Origin: Rhizophagus irregularis
Taxonomy: Eukaryota > Glomeromycota > Glomeromycetes > Glomerales > Glomeraceae
Length of the DNA stretch: 64,000 bases
Direction: 5' to 3'
Assembly: GCF_026210795.1 (NCBI RefSeq)
Contig: NC_089455.1
Span: 558,001-622,000, forward strand
Shown piece after piece: positions 1 to 8,770 of this stretch. Each line of letters opens with the position of its first letter. The stretch's first letter is position 1. The notes under the pieces are model-generated. The model saw only the letters and a program-made list of their open reading frames with translations, ran no database searches and was not told the DNA's origin. The translations under genes were made by a program, and so were the position numbers.

Positions 1-1965
1 ACAAGCCAGACTTCCATATTGAAGGTAAACCTTCGAAAAAAAAAATTATTTTTTTTAAATTAATATAATGAACATTAAACTAATGTTCATTTATTTTTGT
101 TTTAGTTAAAGGAAGCCGAAAATGAATTTTGGACTTCCATATTGAAGGTAAACCTTCGAAAAAAAAAATTTTTTTTTTTAAATTAATATAATGAACATTA
201 TTAAACTAACGTTCATTTCCTTTTGTTTTAGTTAAAGGAAGCCGAAAATGAATTCTGGACTTCCATATCGAAGGTAAACTTGAAAATTTTTATTGTTTTA
301 TTTAATGAAACGTTTCTAACATTTCGTTTTTATATTTTGTAGGAACACGGCACTCCAGACTCCTGGACAGAATTTCGAAGGTAAACTTCGAAATTCTGTT
401 TTTTTTTGTTTTTATTTAAACGAAACGTAGCTAACATTTCGTTTTTCTTTTTCTTTTTTTTTGTAGTTTCGGTACTTCAAAGGTTTCTGAAATGGATAAA
501 GGGTAAGTTTTGCAACGTCTCGTTGCGAAACTTTATAATTTTTTTTTCTTATAAAAGAACATTTCTAACATTCTTTATTCATTTTATAGGTAGAGCTCCG
601 AATGAGTCGAGTTGAGTTGAGTTATATGTAAACTCGATTCGACTTGAGTTAAATCGAGTTGAGTCGAGTCGAGTTAAAATTATAAAAATATAAACTCGAC
701 TCGATTCGAGTCGAGTTGAATTAAATCACGTGATTTTATTCGGCTATGCTGATCATTTCTTTTTTTTGGCGATAGCCGTTCCACAAAATTCCATTTTTGT
801 AATTTTCAAAAATTTTTCGTCTTGGATTTTGTGTAACATAATTTCCAAAAAAGGAAATTCCATAAATTTGGCCGGAATTATGTTTAATTCGGCTTAACTC
901 GACTCAACTCGATTTTATTAAATTATTAACTTGACTCGAATCGATTCGATTTGATTGTAATTTTCAACTTGACTCGACTCAACTCAACCAACTCGCGAGT
1001 CAACTCGACTCATTTCAGAGCACTATTTATAGGTTGCCGGGCTTCTTTGGACGAACTGGACTTGGAATGTAAGGAATAGGAGGAGGAATTTCGAAGGTAA
1101 ATATCTTCGAAATTATATTTTTATTTTTTTTTTGTTTAACGAAATGTTTACTAACGGTTTGTTTGTCTTTCCTTTTGTAGTTTAAGGTTTTCTGGTCGCC
1201 ATCTGGATTGGACGGAATTTCGAAGGTAAATACAGGTACCTTCGAATTTCTTTAATTTTTTTTATATTTTTTTAAAAAAAATTAAACAAAATGTTGGCTA
1301 ACGTTTCAATTTTTTTATCTTTTGTTGGTCCATGGCTTTCTGGGTGCCTTCTTGACGGAATTTCAAAGGTAAAACTTCAAAATTCTGTATTTTTTTATTT
1401 TATTTAAACGAGACGTTAGCTAACATTTTGTTTTTTTTGTAGATTCTCAGTTTTCTGGACACTTCTTAGACAAAATTCAAAGGTATTCCTTCGAATAAAA
1501 TTTTTTTTGTTAATTTTATTTAATAAACGTGAACTAACATTCATTCTTCTTTTATTTTAGGTTCCAGGTTCATATTTTGCTAAAAGTCCTTAGGACAGTG
1601 AACTGTAATGGTGAAGAACTTCGAAGGTAAATACTTTGAAGTTCTTTTTTTGTTTTGCTTTCTTTAACGAACATTATACCAATGTTCATTTTTTTCTTTT
1701 ATTTTAGGTTACAGTTTTCCATTATGAAGAACTTTAAAGTATTTAAGAACTTCAAAGATAAATGCTTTAAAGTTCTATTTTTTAATGATCGTTATACTAA
1801 TGATCGTTTCTTTTATGTTTAGATCCCGGACTGCTGGATTATATATTTCGAAGCTGCTTGCTTCGAAATTTTTTTTATTTGTAGGTCTCCGTTGTTTGTT
1901 GGAATCGAACCAACTGAAACAATGTTCCAAACCATTAACAACATGTAAATGTGCAGTAAAGAGAT
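1..1965 (+). repeat. Array A: tandem mini-exon/intron modules
   Basis: About twelve intron-like segments separate short exon-like segments. Clear GT-AG segments lie at 25-105, 148-231, 274-342, 381-466, 503-589, 1097-1180, 1369-1442, 1483-1560 and 1627-1707. Three more have lost one splice site (about 1226-1327, 1758-1822, 1857-1884). Exon-like pieces are 36-66 nt, most near 40. Two (106-147 and 232-273) are near-identical 42-mers encoding LKEAENEFWTSI(L/S)K. Splicing the first five pieces in the + direction gives one open frame (…QTSILK, LKEAENEFWTSILK, LKEAENEFWTSISK, EHGTPDSWTEFR, SFGTSKVSEMDKG). Most exons end in TTCGAAG or a close variant, followed by GTAAA. Later units carry stops or lost splice sites, so that part has decayed. 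The array starts before the window. It could be a repetitive protein gene, a spliced non-coding transcript or part of a mobile element; no family is recognised. Confidence 0.75.
591..1025. mobile_element. hAT-like MITE inserted in array A
   Basis: A 435-bp non-coding foldback element. It is flanked by a perfect 8-bp direct repeat TTTATAGG (583-590 and 1026-1033). The terminal inverted repeats read TAGAGCTCCGAATGAGTCGA on the left and, reverse-complemented, TAGTGCTCTGAAATGAGTCG on the right. An 8-bp duplication with YARNG termini is the hAT superfamily signature. More than 100 bp at each end is packed with GAGTC/GACTC repeats in opposite orientation, as expected for subterminal transposase-binding repeats. 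The centre has no coding capacity. The left insertion point coincides with the 3' splice site of the fifth intron module of array A. Confidence 0.85.
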
Positions 1966-2277
1966 AATAAATAGCAATAACTAGTAATAGATTTCAATTG
2001 TATTTGTAAACTTGTTAATATATAATAAAAAAGTAATTTTGATTATATAAATAAATTAATAATTAATGCAATAAATTAATTTGTATTATTGTGACGCAGA
2101 TTTTTACTGAAAAAAATTGCTGAGGTATTTCGAAGGTTTTTTATTTAAAAATCTGCGCAGAACTTTGTTATTTATAAAATCTGTGCAGTTTTTTATTGGA
2201 TTTTTCCTCTAATGTTTTGTGCCAGGGTATAAGATCTGCGCAGAAATAATTTCTGAAAATCTGCGCAGATCTGCTCC
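1966..2277. repeat. AT-rich spacer with CTGCGCAG palindromes
   Basis: No gene is seen. Several copies of the palindromic core CTGCGCAG (or CTGTGCAG) occur between about 2150 and 2272. The last two copies (near 2233 and 2262) face each other as part of an inverted repeat immediately next to the Helitron remnant. They may be part of that element's end, but no convincing Helitron 3' terminus (hairpin plus CTRR) was identified. Confidence 0.5.
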
Positions 2278-2958
2278 CTAAAAAATTTCCCGATGGTAAT
2301 TCTCCAAGAATCGTAGGATCGAAGTTCCAGGCATTATATTTAATCTATTTTGTATTTCATGATCAGTATCATAAATATATATTTGAGCAAATTGAGGTTG
2401 GGTTTCAGAATTGGGTAATAAAGAACCAATTCTATGATACATTTCTCCATGAATACGAAAAGTATAAATACCACTAGTACTAGTAATCTGTTGGTCAATT
2501 TTTGCTTCTATTGATGTAAAAGATAAAGCAGAATTATATATTCTAATATTTTGTCTAAATGTACATGAGCGTGGATCAGTTTCAGTAAGAAGTATATTAA
2601 GAGGTAATGGTAATTCTTGAAGAAAAGGAAGTATTACTTTGCCTTTTGCATAGCAAATACTAAATACTAATAATTTTACTGATTTATTAATTCTTTCATC
2701 TAACCACATCATAGCTCCACACTCATTACATTTATAAGTCATATTACCTAATGTATGATGATGTAATCCAAGAGAAATCCATAGATAAATACGTGCTTTT
2801 GGAATTGGTAATAATTCAATAATTTCATCAGTAACTTCTTTTGTTCTTTTTGATGATGCTGTATTTTCTTTTTCAATTCTCCTTTTTCGCTTATGATAAG
2901 TTCATTGATGGTCAGCCTGAAGTATTTTTTGACATTCTCTAAGTATTTCACTATTCAT
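2278..2958 (-). pseudogene. Helitron-type replicase/helicase N-terminal remnant
   Basis: The minus-strand reading resembles the region leading into the Helitron-like N-terminal (Rep-associated) domain of Helitron/PIF1-type transposon proteins. It has a CNECGAMMW zinc-like motif, then IYNSALSFTSIEAKID, TFRIHGEMYHRIGSLLP, QFAQIYIYDTDHEIQNRLN and a stop. The frame can be followed upstream to an ATG at 2958 (MNSEILRECQKILQADHQ), but an in-frame TGA follows directly, and the same frame then resumes with a basic segment and a PKARIYLWISLGLHHHTLG stretch. The HUH nuclease and helicase parts are absent downstream. It is therefore a truncated, broken copy of a rolling-circle transposon protein. The family call rests on remembered motif similarity. 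Confidence 0.75.
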
Positions 2959-3429: not shown

Positions 3430-3769
3430 TCAGCCATTAGCATCCAACTGCCTATGACCCAATAATACATCACCACTACCTTCTGATACTACAAGATCCC
3501 AAGTATTACATAGGAGTAGAGGTGTGCTCCGGTGAAATCCATTCAATCCGTCATTGATCCGATCAAAAAATGGATCATCCGAATTAAGAATAAATGGATT
3601 GCAGATAATCCGGATGGATCCGTTAGATAACATCAGATTGATCGGATATTACACAGATGACCAGATTGACCGGATTGATCAGATAATCTGGTCAAATTCA
3701 AACCTTTTTTTTTTTTTTAACATAAATGTTTTTTTTTTAAAAAAAAAACACCTTTTTTTCTTTAGGACG

Positions 3770-5450
3770 GACTTGGACTTGGACTTCGGAATGACTTGGA
3801 CAGCTTGAATTTCAAAAAGTAAGTGTAAATTTCTTTTTCTTTTGTCTTGGGAACGTCACTAAACGTTCCTTTACTTTATTTCTTTAGAAGACGCCTGCCT
3901 GGAACTCAATTTCGGCTTAGGCTATAAAGGTAAGTTGGGGAGGGTAATTTTGATTTTTTGTTTGTCTTTGGGAACATCATTAACGTTCCTTTTGCTTTTT
4001 TTCTTTAGGGGACACCCTTCCGGATTTGGATTTCGGCTTGGGCTATAAAGGTAAGTTGGGGGAGAGTATTTTCAGGTTTTTTTTGTTTTTTGGAACGTCA
4101 TTAACGTTTCTTTTGCTTTTTTTCTTTAGGTGACGCCCTTCCTAGACCTGGATTTCGGCTTGGGCTATTAAAGTAAGTCGGAGAGGTTATTTTTGGGGTT
4201 TTTTTTGTCTTTGGGAACGTATTGACGTTTCTTTTGCTTCTTTTCTTTAGGTGACGCCCTTTCTGGACCTGGATTTCAGCTTGGGCTATTAAAGTAAGTT
4301 GGGGAAGGGTTTTTTATCTTTTTTTTTGTCTTTGGGAACGTATTAACGTTCCTTTTGCTTTTTTCTTTAGGTGACACCCTTCCTAGACCTGGATTTTGGC
4401 TTGGGCTATTAAAGTAAGTTGGAGAAGTTATTTTTGTTTTTTTTTTGTCTTTAGGAACGTCATTAACGTTCCTTTTGCTCTTTTCTTTAAGTGACGCCCT
4501 TCCTGGACCTGGATTTTGGCTTGGGCTATTTAGGTAAGTTGAGGGAGGGTGTTTTGCTTATTTTTTTTTTAGGAACGTCATTAACGTTTTTTTTGCTTCT
4601 TTTCTTTAGGTGATGCCCTTCCTAACCCGGATTTCGGCTTAGGCTATTAAAGTAAGTTGGGGAAGTTATTTTTGGGTTTTTTTTGTCTTTGGGAACGTAA
4701 CTAACGTTCCTTTTGCTTCTTTTCTTTAGAGTTTCTTTCTACTGATTTTGGATTGCAATTTATTAAAGTAAGTTGAGGGAGGGTGTTTTGCTTATTTTGT
4801 CTTTGGGAACGTAACTAACGTTCCTTTTGCTTCTTTTCTTTAGGTGACGCCCTTCCTGGATCTGGATTTCAGCTTGGATTATTAAAGTAAGTTGGGGAAG
4901 GGTTTTTTATCTTTTTTTTGTCTTTGGGAACGTATTAATGTTCCTTTTTCTTTTTTCTTTAGGTGACGCCCTTCTAAGACCCTGGATTTTTGGGTTGATA
5001 ACTTTATTAGTCTCTATTACTGCGAAAGTCGAGAGGATCTTCTCTGAAATTAATGGTAAACTTACCGCAAAACTTAATACCAAAATTTCTAATTAATTCA
5101 CCACACGTCTATCCTTGGCTTGGGTTATTAAAGTATGTTGGGGAGGGTATTTTTGGTTTTTTTTGTCTTTAGGAACGTAACTAACGTTCCTTTTGCTTCT
5201 TTTCTTTAGGAGGACGCCTTTTGGATTTGGATTTCGGCATGGGTTATAAAGGTAAGTTGGGGGAAAGGTATTTTTGTTTTTTTGTTTTTAGGAACGTAAT
5301 TAACATTCCTTTTGCTTCTTTTTTAAGGACTGGCATTAACCTTCTTGGACCTGGATTTCGGCATGGGTTATAAAGATAAGTCGGAGAGGGGATTTTTTTG
5401 TTTTTTTAGTCTTTGGATAGTCTCTTCTTTTTTTTTCTTTAAGGGTCTTC
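3770..5450 (+). repeat. Array B: tandem mini-exon/intron modules in the hAT element
   Basis: Twelve to thirteen units of about 120 bp. Each has an exon-like part of about 42-43 nt (core GACGCCCTTCCTGGACCTGG then a GGCTTGGGCTAT end) and a 69-80 nt intron-like part. The intron starts GTAAGT, is T-rich, contains a near-perfect inverted repeat GGAACGT…ACGTTCC around AACTA, ACTAA or CATTA, and ends TTTCTTTAG. Examples are introns 3819-3887 and 3930-4008; the best hairpin is 4692-4710. Exons are often 43 nt, so the frame drifts and stops appear after splicing. One frame reads LPGPGFRLGLLK, resembling the GPGF units of array C. One exon (4963-5130) is enlarged by the hAT-like remnant. The array is probably transcribable and spliceable but no longer protein-coding. 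Confidence 0.75.
4998..5096 (+). pseudogene. Possible hAT transposase C-terminal remnant
   Basis: A short frame reads ITLLVSITAKVERIFSEING then KLTAKLNTKISN and a stop. The pattern A-x2-ER-x-FS followed by a lysine-rich stretch resembles the hAT C-terminal dimerisation domain core (SA-x2-ER-x-FS). It lies within the enlarged exon of array B, inside a hAT-ended element, which fits a leftover of an autonomous parent's transposase. The match is short, so confidence is moderate. Confidence 0.5.
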
Positions 5451-5871
5451 AAACTGGTTCGATCCAAATCTTAAACTTTTTATAAATATTGTGTCAACTA
5501 ATTTGTTAAAAACCATTTGTAATAACGTAAAAATAAATACTATGTTTATTATTAAAAAATTCCTAATTGTTAATTAATATTAATAAAAGTATTAAGTAGA
5601 AAAAACTGAATTCAGATTCATCAGATTTACCAGATTGACCGGATTATTCAGATATCCAGTCAACCATCCGGTCAAATTGGTGAGCAAGTATTGACCGGAT
5701 ATCTGATGATCCATTCAGTCAATCCGATGAATCATCTGGATCAATCTGAATCCAGTCAAATTTCGGATGGATGACTGGATATCCGGATTGACTGGATTCG
5801 GAGCATACCTCTACATAGGAGCATGACACTTTCACTATGTGCATACCTTGCTTTCATGATACGGTCTACCA

Positions 5872-6516
5872 AGGACCCTGGACATCACATATATAACTCA
5901 TAACTGATCTGCATGAATTTAAGTACTTTTTGCTCCTGCTAAAATAGACCTAATTTGCTAAAAATCAAATTATCACATTTCAAATCTATATCTTAATTTG
6001 CTAAAACTCAAAATATGAGTTAATAATCTTTTTTTTTTATTATTAATAAAAAAATAAATGATTAATATAAATTAAACTGCCAATTTTTATAATTAAAATA
6101 TGTAGATTATGGATAAAATAATAATTAATAAAAATAATAAATTAAATAAATAATTATTAAAAAATAAAATGTTGCGAAACTAAACAGACGGTTTTTGGCC
6201 CGCATTATGCTTAATTTTGGCCGGAATTATACTTAATTTTGGCCAAAATATGACCCAGACCCCGAAACCAATATTTTTAAAAATATTATTTATAAAGTTA
6301 AAAACAAAGGATAAGTTAAATTTAAAAAAAAAGTACCAATTTGCTCAAATATAAAATATGACTTTGTAAAATCAATACAATTTGCTAAAACTCATAATTA
6401 TGACTATTAATTAATTTTCAATCAATTTACTCTTTCTAAAATTATGAGTTTAACCTAATTTTGATTGAATTTGCTAAAACTCAAATATGAGTTATATATG
6501 TGATGTCCGGGGTCCT
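5872..6516. mobile_element. Non-coding TIR element with near-perfect 8-bp duplication
   Basis: A 645-bp element whose ends are about 30-bp inverted repeats: AGGACCCTGGACATCACATA on the left and AGGACCCCGGACATCACATA as the reverse complement of the right, both continuing into TATAACTCATA. Flanks are GTCTACCA (5864-5871) and GCCTACCA (6517-6524), an 8-bp duplication with one mismatch. The interior is AT-rich, repeats AATTTGCTAAAACTCA motifs and has TTTTGGCCGGAATTAT segments also seen inside the MITE at 591-1025. No coding capacity. The duplication length suggests hAT, but the AGGAC terminus is not a clean YARNG match. Confidence 0.7.
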
Positions 6517-6534
6517 GCCTACCATATAGAGGTC

Positions 6535-7240
6535 TTAATGGTGTATTTCATCAGCAGGTCAAAAAAACTCTCGAATGATCTCCTAATTACAGTAGTACCT
6601 TGTAATCTACATATAGTTTTCATTTTAGTTGGTTCTCATGGGTGAGTCTTTTTTCATTTTCATTGTTTCTTTTTTTTATTTGTTAAAGAAAAAATGAAAT
6701 AAAAAAAAAACGAGTTAAAAAAAAAAGGAAATTTTTTTTGTAAAACGAAAAGAACAGTTGATAAGGGAGGAAAAAAAATGTTTTTTTTTTTAAAATGAAA
6801 AAGAATGATCAATAAAGAGACAAAAACAAAATAATAATTTTTTTTTAATGAAGGGACTGAAAAAAAAACAAAAAATTTAAAAAAAAAAGGATTTTTTTTT
6901 AAACGAAATGAATGACCAATGAGAAAGAAAAAAAATGCATTTTTTTTTAAAAAAAAAATGAAAGGGGGGAAGTTAATTTTTCATAAACGGAAAAAAAAAT
7001 TCTGATTTAATTGAGCTATTCGAAGTAATTAAATATATCAGTTGATGTAAAATAAGTATTTACTTTAATATCCCGCACTAAATACACAATATACGCCAAA
7101 TTTTTTTTATTTTACGGGTTAATGAAGACTCACTGAATCCAGAGGATGCCTTTGGTGATTTCTTGTATGAAACGAAGCTTATCAAAATATGTTAAGTCTT
7201 TGTTGTATTCAAGATACTCTCGCAAGCTCCTCGCTTTGAA
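6535..7240. repeat. Purine-rich degenerate tandem repeat and flanks
   Basis: No gene seen. From about 6660 to 6990 the + strand is a degenerate repeat of about 65 bp made of A-tracts, T-tracts, AAAACGAAAAGAA-type and GAATGATCAATAAAG-type motifs. It is purine-rich on this strand, opposite in polarity to the pyrimidine-rich introns of array C just downstream, so long transcripts could fold back here. Confidence 0.45.
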
Positions 7241-8770
7241 ATTTAAGGTGAGTTATTGTTTTTCGTTCTCTTTTTTTTCATTTTCACTTCATTCTAATTT
7301 TGTTTCTTTTTAGGTCCTGGTTTTTAGCATTTCGGCTTTTCAGTTAATTATCTAATCTATGAACTAACTGTGGAGAATCAGGATAATCAAACTGCAATAT
7401 TGGAAATATTGGAGAAAAAAAATTAAAAAATCCTGAACGTCTTTAGAATAAGCTGATTAAGAAATCAAATACTATGTAATAAACTATCAACATGATTAAG
7501 CATTTCGGTCCACCTTTCATAGAACGAAGGTACGTCTTTTTTTGTTTAGTTTCTTCATTCTTTTTGGTCTTTTTTCGTTCTTTTCAGTTTTGTTTCATAC
7601 TTTTTGGTCTTGTTTTGTTTTTTCTAGTCTTGTTTTGGTCTTGTTTTTGGTCTTGTTTCGATCTTTTCAATCTTGTTTCGATCTTATTTTGTTCTTTTCG
7701 ATCTTATTTTGATCTTTTTAGTCTTATTTTGGTCTTGTTTTTGGTCTTGTTTCGATCTTTTTGATCTTATTTCATTCTTGTTTCGTTCTTTTTGATCTTG
7801 TTTTGATCTTGTTTTGATCTTGTTTTGTTCTTTTCGATCTTATTTTGATTTTGTTTTGATCTTTTTGATCTTATTTCAGTTTTATTTTCGGTCTTGTTTT
7901 GTTTTTTTCTGATCTTGTTTCGATCTTGTTTTGTTCTTTTTGATCTTGTTTTGATCTTGTTTCATTCTAACTTTTCTCTGTTTTTAGGTTCCGGTTTTTT
8001 GGTATTTCGGCTCTTCAGTTCAAAAATATGTCTTTTTTTCGTTTCTTTGTTGTTTTCATTTTTTTCGTTCTAACTTTTCTCTGTTTTTAGGTCCCGGTTC
8101 TTTAGTATTTTGGCTCTTCGATTTGAAGGTATATCTTTTTTTCATTTCTTTGTTGTTTCATTTTTTTGTTGCTTTCGTTCTTTTCGTTCTAACTTTTCTC
8201 TGTTCTTAGGTCCTGGTTTTTTGGCATTTTGGCTCTTTGGTTCGAAGGTATGTCTTTTTTTTCGTTTCTTTGTTGCTTTTGTTCTTTTTGTTTTAACAAA
8301 CTCTTTTTTCCTCTTAGGTCCTGGTTCTTTTTTCAACAACTTCGGCACTTTGGCATTTAGTTCCACATTTCGGTTTTAAGATGTGTTCTTTTTTATTTAT
8401 ATTTATTTTCTTTTTCGTTTTCGCTTTGTTCTAACTTATTTTCTCTTAGGTTCCAGTTCTTTCTTTGGCTACTTCGGCACTTTGTCATTTCAGTTTTACA
8501 TACAGGTGGGTCCTTTTTTTTTGTTTTTTTTTGTTTTATAAATCATTTCTAACTTCTTTTTCTTTTTTTTTTTTTTTGTTTACTTCTTTCAGTTCTTCTT
8601 TCTTTTTGTTTCTTTTTTGTTTTTTTTTACTGCGTTTTTTTTATTTTTTTTTAAGAAAAAGGAAAAAGGAAATGACTAAACGCGTAATTATTTTTGACAT
8701 GTTATATATACATAAATATCAAGATTGGTACTTTTGCGCACGATGTGGTCATACAATTGTAAATGGTTAA
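7241..8770 (+). repeat. Array C: mini-exon/intron modules with a TCTTG minisatellite
   Basis: GT-AG intron-like segments lie at 7248-7313, 7530-7987, 8129-8209, 8248-8317 and 8506-8592. Two others have lost their donor (ending 8090 and 8449). Branch-like TTCTAAC sits about 20 nt before several 3' ends. Exons at 8091-8128 and 8210-8247 are 38 nt; the latter is open in all three frames, giving GPGFLAFWLFGSK, VLVFWHFGSLVR or SWFFGILALWFE. Exons start GTYCYGG and several end GAAG. The 458-nt intron holds a minisatellite of 11-12 bp units (TTTTGATCTTG, TTTCGATCTTT) at about 7550-7975. A terminal open segment ends in YFCARCGHTIVNG at 8770. No family recognised; the architecture is like arrays A and B. 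Confidence 0.65.

What the first reader, a model, noticed from the sequence alone, without database searches (positions are those of the whole stretch)
1..1965. Splice sites placed in hairpins: 5' splice site in the loop of a junction-spanning stem
In array A almost every exon-intron junction is an inverted repeat whose loop is the GTAAA donor. At 368-398 the arms CAGAATTTCGAAG and CTTCGAAATTCTG pair perfectly (13 bp) around GTAAA. Similar stems occur at the junctions near 1097, 1226, 1369, 1483 and 1627, with sequence changes that largely keep pairing (for example AAGAACTTCGAAG with CTTTGAAGTTCTT at 1614-1646). Even the unit at 1848-1871, which has lost its donor, keeps the stem. Weaker GAAG…CTTT forms occur in array C. 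A repeated, compensating structure caging the donor is not an expected feature of ordinary fungal introns and suggests selection for the fold, regulated splicing or a structured-intron family.
Basis: partly seen in the sequence, partly recalled or inferred. Interest (0 to 1): 0.88.

Follow-up and report, generated by a model that had tools for sequence, protein, structure and literature searches.

The report
Transposon built from palindrome-bearing introns
The stretch is part of a repeated jumping DNA element in a soil fungus whose body is a row of small exon-and-intron-like units, most with a self-pairing sequence centred on the point where the intron would begin; the self-pairing is real and shared by many copies, but the copies decay without any sign that selection on the RNA fold keeps it.

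Summary
The stems are real: 8 of 11 tested windows in array A have z below -2, and the pattern recurs in hundreds of related units. But array A is not an ordinary gene. It is the right-hand part of a 4.17-kb transposon with inverted ends (CATCGGGAAATTTTTT) and 2-bp target duplications, one of at least 40 places in a 146.7-Mb genome, inferred to be Rhizophagus irregularis DAOM197198, and it sits in a Helitron remnant. Its body is about 20 tandem exon-intron-like units. Most introns have two palindromes: one at the donor, one over the branch-site region. In strong unit types the donor GT is paired (16 of 31) as often as looped out (12 of 31). Public R. irregularis gene models join exons at these donors, so splicing is plausible but not shown. 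Arms pair better with their own partner than with swapped ones, yet G-U and A-C mismatches are equally common (102 vs 94) and copies show no excess of compensation. So the structure is ancestral to the element; RNA-level selection is not supported. Array B is a second, hAT-like element with the same exon-intron-array plan but no donor hairpin. None of the papers listed by nine searches described such elements.

The parts
1..2296 (+). Right-hand part of transposon copy A (whole copy C27:556131-560296, 4166 bp; 1870 bp lie upstream of the window). Ends ...AAAAAATTTCCCGATG at 2296; target duplication GT at 2297-2298 (and C27:556129-556130)
   Evidence: End matches in many copies stop within a few bases of these positions; end sequences and flanks
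1..1890 (+). Array A: tandem exon-intron-like units; donors at 25, 148, 274, 381, 503, 1097, 1226, 1369, 1483, 1627; array continues upstream to about L009:2840
   Evidence: Direct reading, profile hits, folding
366..400 (+). Junction palindrome J around GTAAA at 381-385; best example in the window
   Evidence: -21.1 kcal/mol, z -6.1
1087..1114 (+). Junction palindrome at donor 1097
   Evidence: -12.2 kcal/mol, z -3.4
1214..1251 (+). Junction palindrome at donor 1226; donor GGTA can pair with TACC
   Evidence: -17.0 kcal/mol, z -4.7
1355..1388 (+). Junction palindrome at donor 1369; CA in the core of both arms gives two A-C mismatches
   Evidence: -10.7 kcal/mol, z -3.4
1474..1497 (+). Weak junction palindrome at donor 1483
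   Evidence: -7.6 kcal/mol, z -2.2, 10 of 200 shuffles as good
1614..1646 (+). Junction palindrome at donor 1627, arms AAGAACTTCGAAG / CTTTGAAGTTCTT with one G-U
   Evidence: -17.4 kcal/mol, z -5.4
1746..1776 (+). Junction palindrome of a unit whose donor reads AT here; a cluster of 4 related units has GT
   Evidence: -8.4 kcal/mol, z -2.4; cluster L018_3638
1845..1869 (+). Palindrome of a unit without GT donor
   Evidence: -12.9 kcal/mol, z -4.3
68..90 (+). Branch-site palindrome B (ATGAACATTAAACTAATGTTCAT); similar at 191-216, 304-328, 419-443
   Evidence: Direct reading; family-wide B stems
1893..2296 (+). 3' part of the element with CTGCGCAGA repeats and right terminal inverted repeat
   Evidence: 91-97% identity at the 39 other main places
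3517..5813 (+). Array B element: inverted ends TAGAGGTGTGCTCC / TAGAGGTATGCTCC, 8-bp duplication CATAGGAG, body of ~121-bp exon-intron-like units with a branch-site hairpin (by eye) but no donor hairpin

Best explanation
Array A is the body of a transposon with terminal inverted repeats; the window copy holds no open frame longer than 90 residues, so it has no transposase of its own. It spread through the R. irregularis genome by transposition (shown by ends, duplications and copies), and its ~120-bp exon-intron units multiplied within it by tandem duplication (inferred from variable unit numbers in a conserved order). Its transcript is probably spliced at these donors (inferred; public gene models do so). 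Most introns carry two palindromes that were already in the ancestral units: one at the donor (core TTCGAAG|GTA...CTTCGAA) and one over the branch-site region. The core is conserved across unit types as sequence. Because TTCGAA is its own reverse complement, two copies of it flanking the donor must pair, so most of the stem follows from a repeated self-complementary motif rather than from selection for a caged donor; most likely (inferred) the motif serves recognition of the intron or of the DNA during the element's active phase. After insertion the copies decay by CpG loss and the stems erode.
For: Matching 2-bp duplications in 12 of the 15 copies whose two ends are printed (window copy included). 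Forty candidates scored for each end (of 189 for the 3' and 94 for the 5' end): 40 places each, 91-97% and 83-94% identity apart from the window copy. No frame over 90 residues in the copy. Unit order conserved between copies with variable unit number (by eye). 593 donors located, 566 with GT; GT in 109 of 116 non-redundant unit types. In 101 types exon -7..-1 TTCGAAG and intron CTTCGAA at 60-98% per position (inflated, because types were found with a profile of such units and kept only if the inner six positions paired). R. irregularis proteins P0003 (144 of 144 residues in exact exon pieces of L013) and P0004 (100 of 113 in the window's own copy, L009) are joined at these donors. G-U equals A-C in decay; no excess of compensation in CG/CG types.
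Against: Outer arms do covary between unit types (own 451, permuted 401, sd 10), which a plain sequence motif does not need. Double compensating changes on one branch (45) exceed a tree-based null (mean 10.5, max 20 of 300), although 29 of the 45 are at the CpG pairs. Not all types have the stem: 60 of 109 fold at or below -8 kcal/mol. No read data seen, so splicing is not shown. What would bind the motif is unknown.
Confidence: 0.55

Rival explanations
1. One reading: the stems act as RNA hairpins that cage or present the donor and the branch site and thereby time or regulate splicing; selection in active (master) elements kept the pairing, and what we see in the genome is mostly decay after insertion.
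For: Strong stems in majority sequences of many unit types (e.g. -22.5, -20.5, -19.3, -17.4, -16.5 kcal/mol; 31 of 43 types with three or more members at or below -8); outer-arm covariation between unit types such as CAGAATTT/AAATTCTG, AAGAACTT/AAGTTCTT, CATTTC/GAAATG; overall pairedness 0.73 vs null maximum 0.58; a second palindrome over the branch-site region.
Against: In majority sequences of 43 unit types G-U and A-C mismatches are equal (29 vs 34). Per-pair covariation on the tree does not exceed the null (best fractions 0.06-0.10). Donor GT paired in 16 and unpaired in 12 of 31 strong types, so no one geometry is kept.
Confidence: 0.2
2. The palindromes are DNA features: either sites or hairpins used in replication or transposition, or self-perpetuating products of template switching at inverted repeats, and splicing is incidental.
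For: Strand-symmetric deviations; stems with hardly any G-U (5 of 264 Watson-Crick plus G-U non-core J pairs in types of three or more); inward extension of the palindrome through the donor (GGTAAA...TTTACC, GGTATA...TATACC) in several types.
Against: Template-switch correction should make complementary double changes among copies; no excess in CG/CG types (17 vs 26). The palindromes stay at donor and branch site across types with unlike exons.
Confidence: 0.2
3. The arrays are an unspliced minisatellite inside a transposon; GT..AG resemblance is inherited by duplication from one ancestral intron and the gene models are prediction artefacts.
For: 26 of 486 adjacent unit pairs have no acceptor by my rule; exon lengths are mixed modulo 3 (208/109/143 of 460) and no single frame runs through; model P0003 passes over some units; array B exons of 43 nt by eye.
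Against: Donor GT in 566 of 593 units; acceptors TAG/CAG/AAG after T-rich tracts in 460 of 486; several gene models, one set made with RNA-seq hints.
Confidence: 0.15

Closest known systems
Internally symmetrical sister stwintrons and derived introns of Hypoxylaceae (PMC8469720; passages read)
   Same: Fungal spliceosomal introns of one family with strong internal inverted symmetry, multiplied in a genome; the authors report that the symmetry is not necessary for removal by the spliceosome
   Different: There the inverted repeats are the two intron ends and the introns integrate at new gene positions without flanking duplications; here one palindrome straddles the exon-intron boundary, another lies inside, and about 20 units sit in tandem inside a transposon with target duplications
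Introners / introner-like elements (PMC9860276; search listing only; otherwise recalled)
   Same: Transposon-borne splice signals
   Different: An introner is one intron that inserts into genes; here one mobile element carries a row of exon-intron units and its ends lie outside them
Non-autonomous DNA transposons with terminal inverted repeats (kind recalled; ISL2EU and hAT duplications from PMC4482050 passages)
   Same: Inverted ends, short duplications, many copies, no transposase in the copy examined
   Different: Body is an exon-intron array; 2-bp duplications of many sequences rather than AT as in ISL2EU
Saccharomyces introns with secondary structure (PMC12350175; search listing only)
   Same: Structure within spliceosomal introns
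   Different: No repeated donor-centred palindrome recalled there

Membership tests
DNA transposon with terminal inverted repeats | Inverted terminal repeats at fixed ends in many copies | tested here: met
   CATCGGGAAATTTTTT at both ends
DNA transposon with terminal inverted repeats | Target-site duplication | tested here: met
   2 bp in 12 of 15 copies with both ends printed; L054/55, L058/59 and L016 do not match
DNA transposon with terminal inverted repeats | Own transposase (autonomous member) | tested here: not met
   Window copy only: no frame over 90 residues between its ends; longer copies not read in full
ISL2EU | AT target duplication | tested here: not met
   GT, TT, TC, AC, TG, AA, AT and TA found; AT rule from PMC4482050
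Introner | Element equals one intron, splice sites at or near its ends | tested here: not met
   Element ends lie about 700 bp and 400 bp outside the array
Sister stwintron | Internal intron splitting a splice element of an outer intron | tested here: inconclusive
   No nested donor-acceptor pair noticed in unit majority sequences; not searched systematically
Self-splicing group I/II intron or other Rfam RNA | Match to an Rfam model at gathering score | tested here: not met
   0 matches in the window; other copies not scanned
hAT (array B element) | 8-bp duplication with short inverted ends | tested here: met
   CATAGGAG; 13 of 14 end bases match; PMC4482050 gives 5-8 bp for hAT; no transposase looked for
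Ordinary protein-coding gene | One reading frame kept through the exons | tested here: inconclusive
   42-nt exons commonest (149 of 460) but 252 of 460 not a multiple of 3; stops in three frames are fewer than in shuffles in all 10 loci tested, longest frame above all 200 shuffles in 3 of 10 (L012, L016, L024)

The most novel reading that the evidence does not exclude
R. irregularis hosts a class of multi-intron DNA transposons, in at least two families with different ends, whose bodies are tandem spliceosomal introns with donor-centred and branch-site-centred palindromes; the spliced, hairpin-rich transcript is what the element needs (for example to pass as a gene, to escape or exploit RNA silencing, or to be removed from host transcripts), which would make intron arrays a transposon survival strategy.
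Probability: 0.25. Interest if true: 0.85.

Novelty: new variant of a known kind. Interest (0 to 1): 0.6.

Why it matters
Two thirds of R. irregularis transposable elements are unclassified (PMC11075540 abstract). A family made of exon-intron arrays would explain part of them, warns that evidence-guided annotation counts such elements as genes (P0003, P0005), and offers hundreds of natural variants of a donor-centred palindrome for testing how structure and sequence act on donor choice. It also gives a new setting, besides introners, where transposition and spliceosomal introns meet.

Tried and rejected
SP7-like effector gene: considered because SP7 genes carry repeats and introns; PMC11333574 passages describe a characteristic signature and one conserved intron before the first repeat, not about 20 tandem introns; not tested by sequence. 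Rfam: 0 gathering matches in the window; the best low-threshold hits (628-737) are the unrelated inverted repeat inserted in the array. tRNA-like look of the minus strand near 1893-1950: ARAGORN and Rfam gave nothing there. Coding test by joined frames: inconclusive. Tree-based per-pair covariation: not significant. B stem: 96 of 109 unit types reach score 6, but so do 47 of 109 shuffles, and the stem was chosen as the best one, so the own-versus-swapped count (806 vs 451) leans towards pairing. Inverted ends for array C: none convincing. The ten extra loci were picked by a core pattern, so only their outer arms are informative. Rows dropped: 593 donors to 591 (edges), to 585 (GT or AT) and 552 (register found); with the extra loci 628 units in 116 clusters, 109 with GT, 101 with register; 1 of 39 six-kb loci (L040) gave no unit hit.

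Full report
WHAT WAS CHECKED. The arms at 368-380 and 386-398 pair perfectly around GTAAA, and the junction stems near 1097, 1226, 1369, 1483 and 1627 exist. Folding of 48-nt windows with 200 dinucleotide shuffles each gives -21.1, -12.2, -17.0, -10.7, -7.6 and -17.4 kcal/mol for these six; the two donor-less units give -8.4 (1746-1776) and -12.9 (1845-1869); the first three donors of the window are weak, -8.0, -8.2 and -2.7. By z below -2 this is 8 of the 11 windows folded; the unit with donor 503 was not folded. Controls outside the arrays: 30 motif-chosen donors average -4.3 kcal/mol, 1 of 30 at or below -8; 130 GGTA sites average -4.8, 9% at or below -8. Array B donors and array C forms look like controls.

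WHAT IT IS. The window is C27:558001-622000 of a 146.7-Mb, 32-contig genome. P0003 (OCT59_026838) and P0005 (OCT59_028390), annotated in R. irregularis, come from contigs of 5,728,094 and 5,296,510 bases, the lengths of C6 and C8 here, so the genome is probably the DAOM197198 assembly of PMC10234402 (inference; passages read). A query of 241 bases from array A gave 85 matching pieces in the 40 scored of 215 candidates. I fetched 39 loci of about 6 kb; a unit profile hit 38 of them, 697 hits on both strands in the third round, 593 donors after orienting. The array continues upstream of the window to about L009:2840.

ELEMENT. Queries with the two flanks of the array gave matches that mostly stop within a few bases of the same position on each side: the copy runs from C27:556131 to 560296, that is to window base 2296. 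Copies show CATCGGGAAATTTTTT... and ...AAAAAATTTCCCGATG at their ends; of the 15 copies whose two ends are printed (ten fetched as end pairs, the window copy, and L015, L016, L029, L030), 12 have matching 2-bp flanks, while L054/55, L058/59 and L016 do not. Forty candidates were scored for each end (of 189 for the 3' and 94 for the 5' end) and gave 45 and 44 matching pieces at 40 places each, so 40 is a lower bound; identities, apart from the window copy, are 91-97% (3') and 83-94% (5') at the main places. Between its ends the copy has no open frame longer than 90 residues. The left flank carries Helitron_like_N fragments (E 4e-24 and 1.5e-9), so the copy sits in a Helitron remnant; the right-flank frame 2278-2742 has no Pfam match.

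UNITS. Units fall into 27 recurring types (406 of 591 units) whose order is largely conserved between copies while the number of central units varies (by eye). Majority sequences show the plan: an exon of about 42 nt, a donor palindrome J, a T-rich stretch, a second palindrome B with a branch-site-like YTRAY in 63 of the 96 unit types that have a B stem, a T-rich tract, and TAG/CAG/AAG (375/52/33 of 460; 26 further pairs without acceptor by my rule). Not every type has J: 60 of 109 GT types, and 31 of the 43 with three or more members, fold at or below -8 kcal/mol; in those 31 the donor GT is paired in 16, unpaired in 12, mixed in 3. In the commonest type the whole GTAAA is paired (ATTTCGAAGGTAAAGTTTACCTTCGAAAT). 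Ten further loci were taken from the list of a genome pattern search (173+136 hits; 1+2 for the reversed control); eight of them hold two or more such units, with other outer arms, for example AACATTTCGAAG / CTTCGAAATGTT and GACATTTTGAAG / CTTCAAAATGTC.

IS THE FOLD UNDER SELECTION? Against. (a) Among 552 units, one-arm CpG changes give G-U 102 times and A-C 94 times (p 0.62); in unit types whose majority is CG/CG, copies changed in both arms are complementary 17 times and not complementary 26 times; over all 552 units the figure is 100 against 62 (odds ratio 2.2, p 0.03; stratified by unit type 1.6), which is in favour of pairing but includes inherited changes. (b) Over 109 non-redundant GT unit types, J and B together hold 85 G-U and 97 A-C; in the 43 types with three or more members 29 and 34. 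(c) With a substitution-replacing null on a tree (my own version of the R-scape idea), no single pair is significant; best fractions 0.06-0.10. For. (d) Swapping intron halves between loci weakens folding from -9.4 to -7.7 kcal/mol; shuffling gives -3.6. (e) Outer pairs 6-13 over 101 unit types: 451 Watson-Crick own, 401 (sd 10, max 432 of 2000) permuted, a control that ignores relatedness. (f) Double compensating changes on one branch: 45 against 10.5 (max 20 of 300), but 29 of 45 at the CpG pairs 4 and 5, where the null probably understates mutation. (g) Pairedness 0.73 against a null maximum of 0.58. Reading: stems are ancestral, differ between unit types in a partner-matched way, and erode in copies without strand preference. 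The inner seven positions on each side are conserved as letters at 60-98% (inflated by the way units were found and filtered); since TTCGAA is self-complementary, this alone makes a stem.

ARE THESE INTRONS? A search with joined exons of L012 found one protein (P0001), and P0001 found four more, all five named as R. irregularis. P0003 consists wholly of exact exon pieces of L013 joined at these donors and acceptors, passing over some units; P0004 (RhiirA5_434334, another strain's model by its name, recalled) matches the window's own copy for 100 of 113 residues, joined among others at window donors 25, 148, 274 and 381. P0001, P0002 and P0005 matched the fetched loci only in part. The DAOM197198 models were made with RNA-seq hints and refined with Nanopore reads, with full or partial boundary support (PMC10234402 passages); I have not seen the reads for these loci. 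Reading frames are not kept consistently (252 of 460 exons are not a multiple of 3), although stops are fewer than in shuffles in all ten loci tested and the longest frame beats all 200 shuffles in three of ten, so protein function is undecided.

SECOND ELEMENT. Array B lies between inverted ends TAGAGGTGTGCTCC / TAGAGGTATGCTCC with the 8-bp duplication CATAGGAG. The left end plus four bases, one mismatch allowed, occurs at 22 places; 18 of the 22 lie within 1.5 kb of an array B match on the same strand in the listed part (compared by eye; that list was cut). So two element families with different ends and duplication lengths share the exon-intron-array plan and, by eye, the branch-site hairpin; only A has the donor palindrome.

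NOVELTY. None of the papers listed by nine searches (open-licence PubMed Central only, top of the list only where hundreds matched) was about transposons made of exon-intron arrays or donor-centred palindromes in them, judged by titles and starts of abstracts. The main texts of PMC11075540 and PMC8647823, on R. irregularis transposable elements, hold no word beginning with intron or splic. Nearest are the symmetrical stwintrons of PMC8469720. I rate it a new variant of known kinds.

Noticed in passing
window 3517-5813: Array B is the body of a hAT-like element with inverted ends and 8-bp duplication CATAGGAG; 22 sites of its left end in the genome, 18 beside array B matches
   Followed up: partly
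window about 599-1017: GAGTCGAGTTGAG-rich inverted-repeat insertion (MITE-like) interrupts array A between units; it gives weak miRNA-precursor Rfam hits below gathering score, probably only because of the inverted repeat
   Followed up: partly
L009:1-1140 minus and window 2297-2950 minus: Helitron_like_N remnant (E 4e-24 on the left side) in which element A appears to be inserted; right-side frame without Pfam match
   Followed up: partly
window 5870-6525: Inverted pair TATATGTGATGTCC... (by eye) suggests a further small inverted-repeat element between arrays B and C
   Followed up: no
window 1893-1950 minus: tRNA-like T-arm sequence GTTGGTTCGATTCCAAC near the 3' end of element A, also in L014 and L021; no ARAGORN or Rfam match
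   Followed up: partly
window 500-545: One unit has a GTAAGT donor (503) with an inverted repeat shifted wholly into the intron (AAGTTTTGCAACG...CGTTGCGAAACTT)
   Followed up: no
window 7230-8520: Array C, multi-copy (57 matching pieces), exon-intron-like, without donor hairpins and without inverted ends found
   Followed up: partly
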